Origin: Amylostereum areolatum
Taxonomy: Eukaryota; Basidiomycota; Agaricomycetes; Russulales; Stereaceae
Length of the DNA: 64,000 nucleotides
Reading direction: 5' to 3'
Assembly (NCBI GenBank): GCA_012932865.1
Contig: SAXG01000014.1
Location: 332,740-396,739 of the forward strand
The position numbers were made by a program, and so were the translations under genes. This document shows positions 51,687 through 64,000 of the stretch, piece after piece. Each line of letters begins with the position of its first letter. The stretch's first letter is position 1. The notes below the pieces were generated by a model. The model did not search any database, had not been told where the DNA came from, and saw only the letters and a program-made list of their open reading frames with translations.

Positions 51687-52314
51687 TGTCCGGTTACAAC
51701 AACGACAACAAGGCAGGCTATGGAACTACTCAGACTGCTCAATTCTATCCTCCAGAAGGTGTGTTCTATCGGCGCTCAGGTTGCGGTACAATTTTATTGA
51801 GCTGCTACATCCAGCGCCACCTCCGGCTCCGGGACCGAGCCAGTCATACACCCAACAGAGTTATCCCCAGCAAGCATACCCCCAACAACAACAGGGATAT
51901 CCACAGCAGGGATCCCAACAAGCGTATCCTCAGCAGGGTTACCCTCAACAAGGATACCCTCAACAAGGGTTCCCCCCGCCCCAAGGTTATTATCCCCAAC
52001 AGCCCCCACAATCGTATGGCGGCGGGCAGCCTTACTATCCCCAACCTCCTCCGCAAACAGTCGTTGTGTAAGCGAGACAATTCTCGTCGATTCTACAGTG
52101 CTCATTACCCTCCTTGTAATTTTACAGCCAGCAGCAGACTCGAGGCGGCGGGGATGAAGCTGCCGGGTGCTGCGCGTGTTGTTTAGGTGCAGTTTTGTGC
52201 GGCTGTCTCGAAGGTACGTGATATTTAGTTGTGGACTGATGATCTTCAATACTCATGATCTGCCCCATCACACCAGGAATATGCATAGAAGCATGTTGTG
52301 ACGCTATCTTCTGA
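51687..52314 (+). CDS. YPQQ-repeat protein with Cys-rich (CYSTM-like) tail
   Basis: Four exons join in phase: [20 protein letters not shown]..., a repeat exon ([17 protein letters not shown]...), [18 protein letters not shown]... and [11 protein letters not shown]. The tail [11 protein letters not shown] with nine Cys in about 30 residues resembles the CYSTM module of small tail-anchored stress/metal-tolerance proteins, where palmitoylation is likely. The Gln/Pro/Tyr repeat is low complexity. About 145 residues, no signal peptide. The strong TATA box suggests regulated, high expression. The function is not established. Confidence 0.75.
51855..51975. repeat. Coding repeat (YPQQ units) in the CYSTM-like gene
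   Basis: Tandem imperfect 12-15 nt units of the type TATCCCCAACAA encode YPQQ-like motifs. Lengths keep the frame. Confidence 0.65.
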
Positions 52315-54526: not shown

Positions 54527-55191
54527 ACACTGTAGCATGCTTCTATCCTATGGCCAAATGGACGCGTCTTCCCTCCTACCTCCTTCTGTAACTATCCGCC
54601 TACATGTCTCACGTATACCCGCCCCACCACTGTACGGCTCATCGCATTCGGATCGAACATTCATGTACACCACACTACTCCATCTCCGCACTGGCATTGA
54701 CGACTCTGACAACACTGTAACGCCTCACGATTCCACGATCCCATTCTCTCAGCACTGTTCACCTGGATGTTCATAGGATGTCTCACTTACATATCACTCA
54801 CTATGAAACGTGTATTTCGGCCATGTTGCCGCTCTCTCCAACTTATGGAGTGGACGTACACTGGCCTGAGCGACATGTACAATCCATATTATGGATTCGC
54901 CAACCGACAGCTATGTTTCATCACTTATACGGAGCGTAGGGTGCGATCCGAGAGTGCGAATTGCTGGACTTTCCATTGAATACCCCTCCGTTAGAATTCC
55001 GAACTTCCTACCATCATTTAGATATATATTGGGTGTTCCATACACAGTGTCTCTTGTCCGTAAGCTACCTAATATACGCTCGTACAATGTATATGCAAGT
55101 AGAGTTTCAAGTCCGTCTGGAAGAGAAATAGGTGGGACAAAACGTAGCGTAAATTATCCAAGTTCCGTAAATGAGTGCTTCCTCTGCATCT
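54527..55191. other. Intergenic between convergent genes
   Basis: 3' flanks of the coiled-coil gene (plus) and the DH-PH block (minus). No coding support. Confidence 0.5.
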
Positions 55192-57652
55192 TACACGCGT
55201 GTCGACTTGCGCGACGCCGCCCTACGATCTGCCTCCCGACTCTTGCGCCCGGCAATGTCGATCTCCGCCATCCAGAGATGACATTCGCGCGCCGAGGGTG
55301 CGCGCAATGCGATGGTGTCCCCTCCACGCGGAAAAGCAGTGGCCACCGAAAACGTGAGGTCGTCTAGACCATATCACCAGTCAGTTCGGCAGGCAATAGT
55401 AGCGTAAGGTGGAAGGGAAAGGAGACTGACCTCGCCCCTCTTTGACTTGAGCCTCCGAAAGATGTATAGGCTGAATCGAGCATAAAGACGAGAATGGGAC
55501 AAGACGAGAAAATACGCACAACGCGGTAGAGAGACTTCGCGTGTTCGTCCGTAAGAATGAATATGTCATTGCAGAGGACAGCGTGAAGTTTCCTGTTGCT
55601 CTTCGCCTTGAACAAGACGCCCTCTTTGATCAATTTTCGTTCACCCAGATGTCTCGTTGGGGCCGTAAGATCCAGCCGTCTGTAGTCGATGTTAAACCAG
55701 ACAAACAGAGATGATCAATATTAAAGCTCACCCATGACCAATCCACAGGTCTTGCGACAGGTGCTTGAGACGTTCTCGGCCTTCCTGGGTGCGAATCGCT
55801 TCGTTGATGTTACCCAAAATCTTTTCCGCTGTCTGCAGTGCATGTTCGGTCATCTGGCGATCCTCATCCGGCTCTGTGTAATGCAGAATCTGCATCGTGT
55901 GGTAGGGTAAGGAGAAACTTCGACAGTATAAGTGTTACTGACCTGCTTGATCAATAGTGGATATCGCGTGATTCGCTGCACTGTAGGTAATGTAAGGGAG
56001 GGCAGTAGGAGACCTGCAATTCACATACTAGGGACAAGAAGATAGCTGGAGAGATCTAGGTTTCGGACGGCAGGTTCGTCCCGCAGATGCTAAACGTGCT
56101 TCAGTTGGTCGGCAGAGGCAAGAGGTTAGAGTATTCGACGGACCTGGAGGTGAAGGGCAAGGTCTGATTGAGATTCACGAAGAGACTGAAGGACCTTGAT
56201 CGCATTGCCCTGGTTGGTGCAGTATTCCTGTGGATGGGCAAGCATCACGACACGGAATGTAACTGCGGGTGTCGTGATCGGACTCACCCTATAGATTTTC
56301 ATATTCTGAAGATTACTATCGAGAAGATCCCCAATACGGTCGATGTACAAGCGACAATCGCGCTGCCGCTCCTCCAGGGAGCTCAAGAATGTCTAGGAAG
56401 TCATCAAGCCTAAGTCTTTACAAGACTCAGCCTGAGTACTCACCGTATTGGTAAGCAAGATATCTTCTACATTAGCGAAGATGACCGTGATAGCCTTGGG
56501 CTCGAGCTTATCTAGAAGGTTGCCGTAGAACACCTATGACCGTACGTTAAAAGCCTCGACCAGAAAAGAAGTGAGAAAAGAAGGGCTACTTCGACGATAA
56601 GCTGCAAGTCACGGACATATGCCGCTTCTGTCGCGATGAACTCGAAGATGGCCTGTACCTCCATCAGCAGGTAAATCCTCAAGTGTAAATCGAGGGTAGC
56701 CTACCTCCTGGCGTTTGCGTTCACGTTCTGGTAAGCCTTCCAGCGCTGACTTGTCCACAATACTGCTCCACGACTTGTCAAAAAAATGAAGTGAGTGTAA
56801 TGCTTCACTGCACGACAAACCGGTGCTCACCAGCCCGAACGATGGATCTGACTCCCTCCCCACAGGCGTCCTCGACTCTTCTCCGGCTCCCGCTCCGCCA
56901 ATAGGACCTGAAATAGGACCTGAAATGACAGGGAAAACCCTTCTCTCGCCATCTGTACCCGGCGTCCGACTCCTCCCCAACAGGTGTCCCAAAAACCCTG
57001 AATACCTCCCTTCTGAATTGGCACTTTCCCTGTCAAATGACTTGCTAGGTGTAAGAGACGACGCGGGCGAGGGCGGGACGGGGCCGTGCCCGCTGTCGAA
57101 CGATGCCATCGAGAGCCTGTTGCTAGCGCTGTCGCTTCCCTGCAGCTTGAACGCCTCGTACCGGTCGAACGCATCATCCAAGCGGAGGATCGACTCGCCG
57201 TCGGCCACGTCGTGGTCGGGGACTGCTGGCAAAGACTTGTTTGGATCTGCCGTCAACGAGGCCGTGCTCGTCTGTCGTCTAGGTGCGGGAACCACAGGAG
57301 GTGGACGACGAGGCTTTGTTGCCGCTGCCCGCAATGACCTGTTACGTCTCACAGGCCTCGGCGGCGGCCTCCTTTCGTCTTGCTTGATGATGAGCCCCGC
57401 AGCCTCCATGACCATCTTGCGCTCCATCGCCCGCGCCTCCCGTTCCAGTTTTCTTTCCTCCTCGGTCTGCTGCTGCTCGTGGTCAGTATCCTCGTCCGTG
57501 TCTGAGTCAGAGAAGGAGTGGTAGTCGGTGTCGCTGGCGTCCATGTCGCTATCATTGTCGATACTGCTGAGAGACCTCTGGTCAGAGGAAGAAAGGAGCG
57601 TGAGAGCGCTCGATCCTGCACTAGAATCGATGTTCATGGACCCCCCCTCCAT
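55192..57652 (-). CDS. DH-PH (RhoGEF) block, probably 3' part of an intersectin gene
   Basis: Rho/Cdc42 guanine-nucleotide exchange module. It begins with an acidic, disordered region (MEGGSMNIDSSAGSS..., DTDYHSFSDSDTDEDTD), a Pro-rich part, then small exons of the DH domain: SSIVDKSALEGLPERERKRQ, VFYGNLLDKLEPKAITVIF, DCRLYIDRIGDLLDSNLQNM, EYCTNQGNAIKVLQSLRES, PMQRITRYPLLIKQ-like HAVQRITRYPLLIKQ, and ILHYTEPDEDRQMTEHAL. The PH domain follows (ERKLIKEGVLFKAKSNRKLH, LCNDIFILTDEHAKSLYRV, PIHLSEAQVKEGR, DDLTFSVATAFPRGGD, ECHLWMAEIDIAGR), stop TAA 55192-55194. An open, in-frame stretch (DGAPPLSSSTSTPAAQEVL...) precedes the first Met back to an acceptor at 57745, so this may not be a separate gene but the end of 57948-62196. 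Confidence 0.85.
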
Positions 57653-57744
57653 TCCAGTTTGATGCGACGGTGGCCGGGGCGTGTCGGGAAGGACTTCTTG
57701 CGCTGCCGGCGTCGAAGTCGACGACGAAAGGGGAGGGGCGCCAT

Positions 57745-57952
57745 CTACGCACGCAGAAAAAATGTCAAAAATAATGTCACATCCAACCGTTCACGAGTGC
57801 GAGAAGAGGGAGGAGAATAACCAGAAAGTTCGTATTGAGTACATGCATGGAAAAGAAAAGGGGGGGGGGAAAGAAAGATATTTTAGCCTATATTCCAACC
57901 AAACGCGATGTGAAAACGAGGACGCCAAGCAAAGGTGGGGGGATCGACTAAC
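57745..57952 (-). other. Candidate isoform-switch intron joining EH/SH3 and DH/PH blocks
   Basis: On the minus strand GAGG is followed by the donor GTTAGT at 57952. The TAG stop of the upstream ORF (57948-57950) overlaps this donor. After a long pyrimidine-rich stretch (C run near 57863-57872) the acceptor is GTGCGTAG (57745-57746). Splicing joins LELVE-D-GAPPLSSS in phase with the DH-PH frame. At 208 nt it is longer than its neighbours. Retention would end the protein at LELVEG. Confidence 0.6.
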
Positions 57953-60900
57953 CCTCGACGAGTTCTAGATACGCGGCCGGAACGATGAACACCACACCTC
58001 CTTGCTCCGCCTTCCACCAGTCGCTCTCGGACCTGTCCACGATGGAGAGGACGTCACCTTCGGCAAAGGGCAGCTCGTCCGCGCTTGCACCTGTGTACGC
58101 GTACAATGCCTTGGCCTTGACTGTGCCATCTTTTTTAGTACGTTATACCAAACAGTAACAGAAAGCAGGCATACCGATGTCCATGATTTGCACGTAAGTC
58201 TTGGGGAAGAAGCCGGACTTGCCATCTCGAACGATAGTTCCATGCCACCAATCCCCACCCGACTTCGAAGGATGAGCTGTGAGAATAAGATTCTCGCCAA
58301 AGGCTACCAACAAACGAGCATGGTGAGTTCCAACCCACGCGAAGAACGCCAATGACTCACAAAGATCCTCCGCTCGCTGGCCTTCGTACGCATACAACGA
58401 GCGCACACGATACTCTGTCGAACACATGTCAATGTCGGCCGTGTCATCAGAAGGAGAGAACATTGAACTCACCAGTCGCCTTGTCAACATCCTCCAAAGG
58501 ATCGCTCTCCTCCACCTGAATGGATGGAACAGGACCCGCATGGCGCGTATCCTCATCCTCGTCCTCTTCCCTCGTGGACGCGAGACCACTCGGTTCCCTG
58601 CTCACCGCGCCGTGATCCGCGGCTAGGCCAGCGTACCAATCGACCGACTGTCTGTTGCTGTTCTTAGAGTCGTCGTTCGCCAGCGGGGGTGCAACAGGTG
58701 TAGCCACAGGTGGAGAGGGCGGACGGACGGAAGTGTTGATGTGAGCGGGGGGTGCAACATCACCAATGACCTTACCCGACACAGGGGCGGAGCTCCGATC
58801 ATTCGTGACTGCCTTCCGAAGACGTGCGCCGCCTTGAATCGCCGAAAGCAGTGCGCTACGACCACCGGAAGAGGCAGGAGCAGCAATAGCAGTAGGCGGG
58901 GGAGGCGGGCCAGGTGCGGGCGGGGGAGGCGGCGGTGCCGGGGCAGGAGGAGCCCCACCATCAAACATCATAGGAGGTGCGGAGGGAGGCGGAGGCGGAG
59001 GGGTGGGGGTCGAAAACGTTGATGCCTTCGGCGTGGTGTTGGAAGCACCAGCAGCGGACTGAGGCCGAGCCGGCGGAAGGATGCTTCCAAACAGCTGTTG
59101 CGCGAGCTTATTGCGGGTGTCGCGGGACGAATCAAGCTCGTCATCGCTGCTATCATCATCATCTTTCTCCTGACCCCAGTCGTCCTCGCTGTCTCCGGAG
59201 GGCGCTGTGTTGTATGAACCACGAGGCGCAGGGCTCTGCGACGTCACAACGGGCGGCGGCGGCGGCGGCGGCGGCGTAGGGGTAGCCTGGGTCTTGAAGA
59301 AGGGGTTGTTGCCTCCGTTAGCAACAGGGGCAGGAGGAGTAGCCGGAGCATCACCGCCCATAAGACGGTTGAAGGGATTATGTGACCCCTTTTCGGAGGC
59401 AGCAGGAGGTGCGCTGGGCGGTGGAGGGGGAGGTGTAGGAGCGACAGCAGGCGGGGGCGGCGCAGGAGGAGGGACGCTTTGTGCCCGAAGCCTTTCTTCT
59501 TCCGCTTGTCTGCGTTTCTCTTCTTCCATCTTACGTTCTTCCTCCCTCCTCCTAGCATCCTCATCCCTGCGCTTCTTGAAATCGTCTTCCCGCTTCCGAT
59601 CCTCTTCTTCCTCTTGCTCGAGCCGTCGAAGACGCTCTAGACGCTCTTCCCTCTGCTTGCGCAACGCCTCTTCGCGCTCACGGAGGCGTTCTTCTTCAGG
59701 ATCGACTACAGGTGCAGGCGGAGGAGGCGCGGGCGCGGGAGGGGCGGCACGGGGTGCAGGGGGAGCAGGTGGTTGAGAGCGAGCGGCGACAGGTGGAGGT
59801 TGCTTCAGCACACCGCGAGGCGGAGGCGGGGCGGGAGCACGAGCCTTGGGTGGCGGAGGTGCAGCCTTAGGAGCCACAGGTGCCGCCTTCGGGGCAGGCG
59901 GAGCTGGCGGGGCGGGGGTCGAAGGGCTTCGGCCGTCCTTGATCGCCTTCTCGCCCTCCAGCCTTTCGCGCCGCGCCCGCTCTCGCTCTTCAGCAGCCTT
60001 CTCCGCTGCTTGTGCCTTCTCCTCTGCCTCGCGTCGTTCCTGCGCAAGCCGATCCCCGACGGAGGTGTCGACCGTCGGGCTGGAGGCTGCGCTCGGCGGA
60101 GGCGCTACCCCAAGGGCGGCCATGCGTTCCGCGAGACGGCGTTGGGCCTCTGCCTTGATGAAGGCCTGTCTCTCTGCGGGCGTCATATTCTTGGTTTGAG
60201 GAGCAGGCGATGCGGTGGGGGCGGGAGGTGGGGGCTTGGCCAAGCTACTGGATGGCGCAGGCGGTGGAGGAGGTGGAGGAGAGCGAACAGCAGGAGGACT
60301 CCGAGGACGATCGTAGTCGCGTGAGCGGTCGGGAGAGCGGTCGCGGTACGAGCGATCTCTGTCATAGTCTCGAGGACGATCATAATCTCGGTCGCGATCC
60401 CGGTCACGTCCACTGTCCCTATCCCTATCCCTATCCCTGTCACGATCGTAGCTCCCATACCGGTCGCGGTCCTCATTGCGGGAGTAGCTGCGATATCCTC
60501 CACGGTCGCTGTCGTGATCGTCGTACCGGCCGAACCTGTCATTGCGACGGTCACGCTCGCGATCGCGTTCCCGCTTCTCCCGTTCTTTGCGTTCTTTGCG
60601 CTCCTCCAGTTTCCGCTCGACCTCGGGGACGCGTTCGTGAAGGAGTTTAAGAAGTTCGCGTTCGAGGCGCCGTCGCTCCTCATCGCTACTGGAAGAACGT
60701 GGCCCAGTACTGACGTAGTCGAGGTCTTCCTGGACGCGCTTCACCCGCCAACGTAGGTCGCTCATTTCCCGGTCTAGAGCCTCGTCCTCGGCGGTACGGC
60801 TGGCGTTCTCATCCGCGACGGAGTCTAATCTGTTGGCTGTGGTCTCCAATTGACGACGCAAGTCCTTGAGATCGGAAGACGGGTTGTCGCGGTCGTTATT

Positions 60901-62196
60901 GCCGCGGACTGTGTCGCGATCCAAATGGCGCGAACGCGGAGTATAATAACCGCCGGCGGGTTCCGTGTCGGTATGCTTGTATACGGTTGCGTCTTGGCGC
61001 CCTCCCGCACCCGTAGCTCCGGGAGAGTTGAATGAGCGCTCTTTGAGGCGGGAGATCGGAGCGTCCACCGCAGATGGCGAGCGCGCGCGAACGTCGTTCT
61101 TCAAGAGACCCTTCAAAAAATCGACCGACTCGCCAAGATCCCGATGCGAGGGAGGGATCCAGTTCGGGCGGAAGTTGGTCAGGGATTTCGTTGCCGTTGA
61201 GCTCTACAGACCGATTAGGAGGACGCTCTCAACGTGTCTTAGAAAGAACGGTACGCACTGCGGTAGATCAAACCCATGGCGACGTGGAACTCAGCGATAT
61301 TGAGCTTGCCGCGATTGTCGACATCGGCTAATGTCCTTGATCCACGAGTCAATACACGTACAAAAACGATTGCAGGCGCAACACGTACCATATCCCTCGC
61401 AAGATCGTTCCTGTCCAACCCGCTTTGCCCGAACACCTCGATAGCCGTGCCTCCGTCGATGAAACCAGTGCCGGCTGCGTCCCATGCGCGGAAAATTTGG
61501 TCATAACTCTTCTTCTCGCCCTTTGAGAGCGCCCATGGAACGCGAGGCGCGGCGGTGCCCTTGACCTCTTGATTGTGTTGCTGAAAGCTCTGTTGGAGCG
61601 ACAGGCCACCGAACTGGGGCTGCTGCTGTAGCTGTGGCACGCCTGCGGCATTGTAAGGGGCAGACGTGTTGGCGGGGAGGAAGGTGCTGGACATCATCTG
61701 CAGCCGAGGATCGATGAAGCCGGTCGCTTGCGGGATGAGGGGTCCCTGTCCTGGAAAGCCAGTTGGCTGGGGCGCGAGCCCCGCACCCAGCCCCGGCGAA
61801 GGGTTCAAAAAGCGGTTCTGCTGGCCTCCTTGTAGACCGAGATATCCGGTCTGTTGAGGCTGCTGCTGTTGCTGCTGCTGGAACTGGTTCGGAAGGGGTG
61901 GAACGGGGGGAATCGGGGGCCTCTGCTGCTGCTGCGGCTGGACAAAGCCGCCATTGAAGTTGTTCGGGATGCCCGGTCTGTTGCGGTAGCAGGCCAGGTC
62001 CTCCGCCAGGGAATCCAGTCTGTTGAGGTTGCTGATATCCTCCCGGCCGCTGAAGACCTTGATATCCGGTGGGCTGAGGAACAAGACCACCTTGCTGGGG
62101 GAAACCTTGGGGCTGCTGAAACCCGGAATTTTGACCTGGAAAGCCGGTCTGTGGAGGGTATTGATATCCCGGCTGACCCTGTCCCCACTGCGCCAT
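57948..62196 (-). CDS. PAN1: Pan1/intersectin-like endocytic scaffold: EH, coiled coil, WH2, two SH3
   Basis: Scaffold linking endocytic coat and actin. Order: QTGF/PTGY-repeat N-terminus (MAQWGQGQPGYQYPPQTGF), Gln/Pro-rich part, one EH domain (WALSKGEKKSYDQIFRAWDA; EF-hand DVDNRGKLNIAEF), coiled coil, Arg/Asp dipeptide region, Ala/Pro tracts, second coiled coil, WH2 (ALLSAIQGGARLRKAV, near 58807-58860), SH3-1 (RVRSLYAYEGQRAEDL...GDWWHGTIVRDGKSGFFP) and SH3-2 (KAKALYAYTGASADELPF...SDWWKAEQGGVVFIVP). Literal frames need one base less in CCC 61972-61974, CCC 61394-61396 and CC 61159-61160, after which IPNNFNGG, IWTLADVDNRG and PPELIPPSHRDLGES read through. Domain content fits basidiomycete Cin1/intersectin better than yeast Pan1, which lacks SH3. 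Probably continues into the DH-PH block. Confidence 0.88.
60400..60450. repeat. Coding microsatellite (Arg/Asp dipeptides) in the PAN1-like gene
   Basis: Imperfect CCCTAT/CGGTCA hexamers that encode alternating Arg-Asp on the minus strand. Frame is kept, and length is likely variable. Confidence 0.6.
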
Positions 62197-63153: not shown

Positions 63154-64000
63154 TTGACATTGAACCGCGACATACTGGTTCTTATCACCGACCTTCTCGA
63201 CCGCACAAGTCTCCTTATATTTGTGCAAGCCTGCAAGCTCTTCCATGACATCGGCCTCGACCACCTCCTGCGACGTCCCATCCATCTCTTCAACATGGAC
63301 AACACCGTTTCCTTCCTCACTTTCCTCCGTGGAGATCCTGTACAACGCGGTGTGCGTGTCCGGGATTTGCGCCTCGACGACGTCCTCAGATACCCGCCGA
63401 TCGAAATGACGCGTATTTGGACTACCAAACTCGTTGGGATTTGGACCAAACTCGTTGGGACTACCAAACTCGTTGGGACTACCAAACTCGTTGGGACTAC
63501 CAAACTCGTTGGGATCCTTGTCCTTTGCCCCAATGTACAGCATCTACAGCTGTCCTCCGGCGATACTTACCTTCACCTGGGCAAACACATTCACCGCGCC
63601 ATATCCTCGCTGGAATTCCTCCATACACTTGACCTCAAGGGCGTAATCCCAGAAGCACTCGACATTCTGAGCCAACAACGCTCGCCCATCGTCAACATCC
63701 GTATCGCCCTCCGCGGATGCGCTCCCAGGCTCACAAAAGACGTCATGCTCCCTTTGGTTTCCTTCCAAGCCACCCTTCGATCCCTCGACATTTCAGGTGC
63801 GGACCTGAACGTCGAGCTGGTCGACGGCGCACGGTACCCGCATGTTCTCTCCCTTCGCTTCTCAATGCCGTCCCACGCGTCGCGCAGTCTCAAGCACTAC
63901 GTGCGGTGCTTCCCAAGCCTCCGCACGTTGATAATCTCATCGATCATTGGCCATATTTTCCCTGTCCGGGCCATCGAAAGCTATCACCGCGAGAACAAGC
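63154..64000 (+). CDS. F-box/LRR-like protein, partial, with in-frame 18-nt repeats
   Basis: An open frame from the likely acceptor CCCCAG (63153) to the window end, truncated 3'. It starts LTLNRDILVLITDLLDRTSL, LLIFVQACKLFHDIGLDHLL, resembling an F-box (helix-Leu-Pro-xx-hydrophobic pattern, though the usual Pro is not evident). LRR-like strings follow: VRVRDLRLDDVLRYPP, CPNVQHLQLSSGD, SLEFLHTLDLKGVIPEALDI, ATLRSLDISGADLN, CFPSLRTLIISSI. Typical of the large Agaricomycete F-box set, probably an SCF ubiquitin-ligase adaptor. Five TKLVG repeats interrupt the LRR part at 63421-63513. The antisense 271-codon frame is a shadow. Confidence 0.72.
   Translation, partial: MTLNRDILVLITDLLDRTSLLIFVQACKLFHDIGLDHLLRRPIHLFNMDNTVSFLTFLRGDPVQRGVRVRDLRLDDVLRYPPIEMTRIWTTKLVGIWTKLVGTTKLVGTTKLVGTTKLVGILVLCPNVQHLQLSSGDTYLHLGKHIHRAISSLEFLHTLDLKGVIPEALDILSQQRSPIVNIRIALRGCAPRLTKDVMLPLVSFQATLRSLDISGADLNVELVDGARYPHVLSLRFSMPSHASRSLKHYVRCFPSLRTLIISSIIGHIFPVRAIESYHRENK
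63421..63513. repeat. Tandem 18-nt repeat, about five units
   Basis: Unit ACTACCAAACTCGTTGGG. Three central copies are identical and one is a shortened variant (ATTTGGACCAAACTC...). It encodes TTKLVG hexapeptides in the plus frame, and the length preserves the reading frame. Confidence 0.9.

What the first reader, a model, noticed from the sequence alone, without database searches (positions are those of the whole stretch)
55192..62196. Two adjacent blocks look like one intersectin-type gene with a splice-controlled short form
The domain order EH, coiled coil, WH2, SH3, SH3 is followed 300 bp later on the same strand by DH and PH, the layout of long animal intersectin. The short-form stop (TAG 57948-57950) overlaps a good donor (GTTAGT). 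The acceptor at 57745-57746 joins an open stretch of about 30 codons in frame with the DH-PH exon. From memory, the Cryptococcus intersectin Cin1 has the same domains and long/short splice forms. If this holds, retention of one intron decides whether the scaffold carries its own Cdc42/Rho exchange activity.
Basis: partly seen in the sequence, partly recalled or inferred. Interest (0 to 1): 0.78.

Follow-up and report, generated by a model that had tools for sequence, protein, structure and literature searches.

The report
Fungal intersectin with a splice-switched tail
This is one gene of a wood-decay mushroom for an endocytosis scaffold (intersectin, like Cin1 of Cryptococcus), in which a stop codon built into a splice site could decide whether the protein carries its own Rho-family switch; the gene type is known, but the built-in stop seems to recur in several fungal orders.

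Summary
On the minus strand, 62196-55191, lies one 18-exon gene: EH, coiled/proline-rich region, WH2, SH3, SH3, DH-PH. The phase-1 intron 57952-57745 (208 nt; the other 16 are 48-67 nt) starts GTTAGT, so unspliced RNA reads Gly-TAG just after the second SH3; splicing joins a 304-codon open exon that leads to DH-PH. Fusion is usual: 111 of 120 listed homologues hold EH, SH3 and DH in one protein, and Amylostereum chailletii proteins (94-99% identical) have the same joint. The DH is nearest to intersectin-1/2 among solved structures. New here: of 28 DH-less homologues that reach the end of SH3-2, 13 end exactly on the Gly that reading into a GT donor would give; the named ones span five orders. 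So the stop-in-donor may be old. Known: Cin1 has these domains and long/short forms (PMC3645719 passages). Not shown: any RNA of this species, or donor DNA of relatives.

The parts
55191..62196 (-). whole gene, 18 exons, Cin1-type intersectin (start codon at 62196, long-form stop TAA ending at 55191)
61137..61526 (-). EH domain (approximate, over two introns; crosses two of the three frame changes)
   Evidence: Pfam PF12763 on piece 61242-61988; full EH in A. chailletii P0002 residues 228-321, placed
58792..58869 (-). WH2 motif
   Evidence: Pfam PF02205, residues 779-804 of the joined query; coordinates
58175..58414 (-). SH3 domain 1, over two exons
   Evidence: Pfam SH3 matches, two stretches, exon map
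57953..58120 (-). SH3 domain 2; the exon ends with the codon split by the switch intron
   Evidence: Pfam SH3 residues 974-1025, exon map
57745..57952 (-). switch intron, 208 nt, GTTAGT...GCGTAG, phase 1
57948..57950 (-). TAG stop of the short form, inside the donor GTTAGT
57888..57889 (-). only internal AG after the donor; candidate proximal 3' splice site (65-nt intron), next codons GGC TAA
56831..57744 (-). long-form linker exon, 914 nt open, in frame with DH
55803..56649 (-). DH (RhoGEF) domain, over six introns
   Evidence: Pfam PF00621 residues 1357-1531, coordinates; best PDB matches intersectin-1/2
55205..55660 (-). PH domain, over two introns (approximate ends); no C2 found after it
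   Evidence: Pfam PF16652 residues 1562-1674, exon map
61146..61995 (-). stretch with three one-base frame changes in the window copy
   Evidence: read through without a break in P0002

Best explanation
One gene encodes a Cin1-type intersectin. SHOWN: the domain order, a single locus for the 3' half, and the reading frames of both outcomes at the intron 57952-57745. SHOWN in relatives: the fused long protein is the usual state among the listed homologues, and many DH-less relatives end on the Gly that reading into a GT donor would give. INFERRED: when the distal 3' splice site (57745) is used, the scaffold gets a linker plus DH-PH and can load a Cdc42/Rho-type GTPase at endocytic actin sites. 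When the intron is kept, or the proximal AG at 57888 is used, translation stops just past the second SH3, and a Pan1/ITSN-S-like scaffold without exchange activity results. INFERRED: a stop inside the donor makes the short protein end cleanly at the SH3 boundary whatever the rest of the intron reads. The frame changes in exons 1-3 are most likely assembly errors.
For: Domains. Exon chain open across 16 exons. Homologues: SH3 and DH in 120 of 120 listed, EH too in 111 of 120. A. chailletii P0001 and P0002 have the same joint, LVED/GAPP. Two contigs of source 'lgn' (P0063, P0064) hold 1977- and 1966-aa ORFs with only 158 and 122 other bases; introns like those of this gene sum to 1084 bases, so these two read as spliced RNA of the long form. 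Split-codon signature: the junction residue is G/A/V/D/E (codons GNN) in 105 of 120, against 50 of 120 one residue later. Short ends: 13 of 28 DH-less homologues end on the Gly, 4 more end 1-8 residues after it. P0123 (short, cluster of 40 sequences) and P0064 (long) are 85% alike, both from 'lgn'. Long and short Cin1.
Against: No RNA from this species, and no donor DNA of relatives. Eleven of the 28 do not fit: 6 end there without Gly (P0125, P0144, P0152, P0157, P0203, P0225), 5 run on or diverge (P0126, P0130, P0132, P0142, P0147). The 28 are part of 51 DH-less rows with an SH3 match; 23 that do not reach the end of SH3-2 were set aside. Eight of the 13 Gly-enders are annotated gene models; a predictor that rejects a GTTAG donor would make such models by itself. 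Of the 9 Gly-type rows without a species name, 5 end at Gly; none of these is shown to be RNA by its contig size. Two further long 'lgn' contigs (P0073, P0081) have 1415 and 1447 spare bases, room enough for introns, so they prove nothing. The residue before the junction is E/D-rich too (109 of 120 GNN). In C. neoformans retention is judged to add little to the proteome (PMC5006051). Cin1 without its GEF had no phenotype. The intron RNA folds worse than 199 of 200 shuffles.
Confidence: 0.67

Rival explanations
1. One gene, but the switch intron is always spliced in this fungus: only the long form is made, and the TAG in the donor is a harmless accident.
For: P0001 and P0002 of A. chailletii are annotated as fused. 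A donor with T at +3 could occur by chance (1 of the 17 introns of this gene). Only 7% of retention events in C. neoformans could give an alternative protein (PMC5006051).
Against: Gly-stop endings recur in several orders. The intron is by far the longest of the gene (208 nt against 48-67) and offers a proximal AG that also leads to Gly-stop. Cin1 is reported with short and long forms.
Confidence: 0.23
2. Two separate neighbouring genes: a Pan1-like scaffold ending at 57948 and a Dbl-type RhoGEF starting at an internal ATG such as 57652.
For: Several genomes are annotated that way: Vanrija albida Q8F55_003566 (P0148, ends on Gly) and Q8F55_003565 (P0266, DH-PH) bear consecutive tags; Cryptococcus decagattii P0261 stands for a cluster of 83 DH-only sequences; Paxillus involutus (short), P. 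ammoniavirescens (DH only) and P. rubicundulus (fused) differ in annotation around the same residue.
Against: 111 of 120 listed homologues are fused. Two RNA-like contigs carry the whole ORF. Acceptor and frame fit the joint, and only 208 bases lie between the blocks.
Confidence: 0.05
3. The window copy is a decaying pseudogene: the three frame changes in exons 1-3 are real and no full scaffold is made from it.
For: Three one-base changes within about 850 bases, against an unbroken P0002. Only one copy was found by DNA search, with the 3' half.
Against: The other 15 exons are open, and P0001 is 99% identical over the 3' part. An A. chailletii protein is unbroken at all three places. Loss of a single-copy endocytosis scaffold would be surprising (inference).
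Confidence: 0.05

Closest known systems
Cin1 of Cryptococcus neoformans (long and short forms)
   Same: One EH, coiled coil, WH2, two SH3, DH-PH, no C2; long and short isoforms (passages of PMC3645719; domains also in passages of PMC7324655).
   Different: Another class and order. Whether the Cin1 short form also ends at a stop inside the donor could not be read: the original paper (PMC3074581) is not held.
Animal intersectin-1/2 (ITSN-L / ITSN-S)
   Same: EH and SH3 scaffold with DH-PH only in the long splice form; the DH of the window is nearest to 1ki1, 3qbv and 3jzy among solved structures.
   Different: Most animal forms have two EH, five SH3 and, in the long form, a C2; WH2 is named as an addition of Cin1 (PMC3645719 passages). 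Here one EH, two SH3, a WH2 and no C2.
Pan1 of ascomycete yeasts
   Same: EH scaffold for actin at endocytic sites (recalled); databases label many of the homologues 'Actin cytoskeleton-regulatory complex protein PAN1'.
   Different: Recalled: yeast Pan1 has no SH3 and no DH-PH. The name is an annotation label.

Membership tests
Cin1-type fungal intersectin | single EH domain | tested here: met
   One EH stretch in P0002 of A. chailletii; in the window the EH is met in pieces because of frame changes
Cin1-type fungal intersectin | WH2 and two SH3 | tested here: met
Cin1-type fungal intersectin | DH-PH in the same gene, no C2 | tested here: met
   no C2 among the Pfam matches up to E 0.1
Cin1-type fungal intersectin | long and short isoforms made by alternative splicing | tested here: inconclusive
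   The sequence permits both; relatives show both ends; no RNA of this species
Cin1-type fungal intersectin | DH binds Cdc42, SH3 binds Wsp1 | not testable with these tools
   told for Cin1 in PMC3645719 passages
Animal-type intersectin | five SH3, two EH, C2 after PH | tested here: not met
   two SH3, one EH, no C2
Intersectin-type RhoGEF | DH-PH closest to intersectin among DH-PH proteins of known structure | tested here: met
   the seven best of 68 matched PDB sequences (60 shown) are intersectins or intersectin fusions

The most novel reading that the evidence does not exclude
A stop codon overlapping the 5' splice site of one intron has been kept since early in Basidiomycota as a binary switch: unspliced (or proximally spliced) RNA gives a scaffold that ends just past SH3-2, distally spliced RNA adds a Cdc42/Rho exchange module. 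The long (DH-PH) intersectin would then be ancestral in fungi (DH-PH-C2 proteins in Rozella, Borealophlyctis and Gigaspora), with the splice switch as the way both isoforms stay available from one gene.
Probability: 0.37. Interest if true: 0.6.

Novelty: new member of a known kind. Interest (0 to 1): 0.4.

Why it matters
A review asks why the exchange module is kept in Cin1 and whether both isoforms are ancient (PMC3645719 passages). A stop codon fixed inside a splice donor at the same place in several orders would be a simple, testable sign that the short isoform is selected for. It would also explain why annotations of this gene flip between fused and split models around one residue (Paxillus, Vanrija), and the searches point to DH-PH intersectin-like proteins outside Basidiomycota that the review did not name.

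Tried and rejected
RNA structure in the switch intron: rejected, 199 of 200 shuffles fold at least as well. So donor bases in other species are deduced from protein ends, not read. Second gene copy: a DNA search with the 3' half (55200-58460) found one locus; a protein search of the genome was tried four times and not answered, so paralogues of the 5' half are untested. Literature: held no paper; (15 of 68 listed) showed no title on this gene; two searches gave the Cin1 papers; (20 of 107 listed) gave only one of them; one search gave no paper on the A. chailletii genome by title. The original Cin1 papers are not held. So I cannot say whether the exact overlap is in print. Donor frequencies for Basidiomycota in PMC10599564: the terms do not occur. 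AG scarcity in the intron (1 internal AG, 5.6 expected from composition, P about 0.025) is noted but weak.

Full report
What is there. The window lies in a genome of 57 Mb in 182 contigs. The protein at 62196-55191 on the minus strand is 99% (P0001, whole query region) and 94% (P0002, 69% of it) identical to proteins of Amylostereum chailletii, of the Russulales, so the window is from that species or a very near one. I built the gene model by hand from splice signals and frames: 18 exons, 17 introns. The 16 introns other than the one in question are 48-67 nt long. The Pfam scan gives EH, WH2, two SH3, RhoGEF and PH. Sixteen other RhoGEF matches, counted by exon and so from fewer genes, were found in the same genome, but only one locus matches the 3' half of this gene as DNA.

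The switch. Intron 57952-57745 is 208 nt, phase 1, with donor GTTAGT. Read unspliced, the split codon becomes GGT (Gly) and the next codon is TAG. Read spliced, it becomes GAT (Asp), and a 914-nt exon open in one frame leads on, over eleven further introns, through DH and PH. The intron is 39% T and 28% C, with a TTGAC branch-like motif about 20 nt before the distal AG. Its only internal AG after the donor, at 57888, would make a 65-nt intron of ordinary size with a TTCAC motif before it; that splice joins G to GC TAA, again Gly-stop. So two ways of not using the distal site give the same short protein.

Relatives, long form. Of 270 homologues (120 listed) found with the SH3-DH-PH part, all 120 listed hold SH3 and DH and 111 hold EH too. 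The A. chailletii proteins have the joint LVED/GAPP predicted here. Four long ORFs come from contigs labelled 'lgn' (I recall this as an assembly of public read sets; no call says so). P0063 and P0064 (1977 and 1966 aa) leave 158 and 122 bases of their contigs, against 1084 bases of introns in the window gene, so I read them as RNA. P0073 and P0081 leave 1415 and 1447 bases, which does not exclude introns.

Relatives, short form. I searched with a 900-residue query, so that full-length long forms fall outside the length limits (137 hits, 120 listed, 112 of them new). Of the 112, 70 match the SH3 pair, 19 with DH and 51 without; 28 of the 51 reach the end of the second SH3 and the other 23 were set aside. 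Thirteen of the 28 end exactly on Gly at the junction (P0121, P0122, P0124, P0128, P0134, P0135, P0136, P0137, P0146, P0148, P0151, P0159, P0160); in five of them (P0121, P0148, P0151, P0159, P0160) the Gly comes one residue earlier than in the window. Four end 1-8 residues after the Gly (P0145, P0150, P0155, P0123). Six end there without Gly and five run on or diverge. The eight named Gly-enders are Abortiporus, Paxillus, Hypsizygus, Mycena, Agrocybe, Pisolithus, Vanrija and Parajaminaea. Looked-up orders are Polyporales, Boletales, Agaricales, Trichosporonales and Microstromatales (one species each; Mycena, Agrocybe and Pisolithus were not looked up); the window adds Russulales. A GT donor after a phase-1 G must read Gly, so Gly at this place is what an unspliced intron predicts; an immediate stop needs T at +3 of the donor, and only 1 of the 17 introns of this gene has it. 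Two cautions. Gene predictors may stop at such donors on their own. And whether the unnamed rows are RNA or genomic is not known: only P0125 has too few spare bases (106) for introns, and it ends in Glu-Asp, not Gly.

Junction codon. In the 120 long forms the junction residue is D, A, G, V or E in 105, against 50 at the next residue. This fits a conserved G before the intron, though the residue just before is also mostly E or D (109 of 120 GNN), so the signal is not unique to the junction.

Annotation flips. Third search (177 hits, 120 listed): DH-PH-only models exist, for example Vanrija Q8F55_003565 beside Q8F55_003566, and Cryptococcus decagattii P0261, a cluster of 83. In Paxillus three species are annotated short, fused and DH-only around the same residue. 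These look like one gene cut in two by annotation; I could not check it on DNA.

GEF. Among solved structures the seven best of 68 matches are intersectin-1 or -2. Cdc42 as the target is inferred from that and from the Cin1 work as told in a review (PMC3645719, passages), which also reports that loss of the Cin1 GEF gave no phenotype.

Wider history. DH-PH with C2 occurs in Gigaspora P0198 (with WH2 and SH3), Borealophlyctis P0316 and Rozella P0319, and Rhizopus P0191 has SH3-SH3-DH, while Mucor P0225 has two EH, WH2 and two SH3 without DH. The review says Cin1 homologues are absent in zygomycetes; these hits speak for a wider spread of the exchange module, though none of the four DH proteins shows an EH domain in the scan, and some may be partial.

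Quality of the window copy. Positions of eight peptides shared with P0002 show three places with one base too many for the frame: 61995-61964, 61430-61334, 61201-61146. P0002 reads on at all three. I take assembly error as likelier than decay, and did not join the pieces.

What is known and what is not. Cin1 with the same domains and with long and short forms is told in passages of PMC3645719; alternative splicing of it also in a passage of PMC3925392. PMC5006051 (abstract, passages and one section seen) holds that retention in C. neoformans mostly tunes expression and adds little to the proteome, which speaks against a protein role by default. Verdict: a new member of the Cin1 kind, with a stop-in-donor that appears to recur and deserves a DNA-level test.

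Noticed in passing
window 61995-61964, 61430-61334, 61201-61146 (-): Three one-base frame changes, all of the same sign, within about 850 bases of an otherwise open gene; probably local assembly errors.
   Followed up: yes
proteins P0198, P0191, P0316, P0319: Intersectin-like DH proteins in Gigaspora, Rhizopus, Borealophlyctis and Rozella, three of them with C2, wider than the passage of PMC3645719 states.
   Followed up: partly
window 63419-63514: 18-bp tandem repeat, 5.2 copies, reading as repeated NEFGSP in an ORF on the minus strand.
   Followed up: no
window 51889-51976: 27-bp / 15-bp tandem repeat; by eye its unit could encode a glutamine/tyrosine/proline-rich repeat.
   Followed up: no
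P0142 and P0123: P0142 passes the switch and ends before the DH with unrelated residues, perhaps in a later kept intron; P0123 reads eight residues past the Gly.
   Followed up: partly
Pisolithus proteins: Many DH-containing Pisolithus albus proteins share one contig length (2104407), which suggests repeated copies of the DH half in that genus.
   Followed up: no
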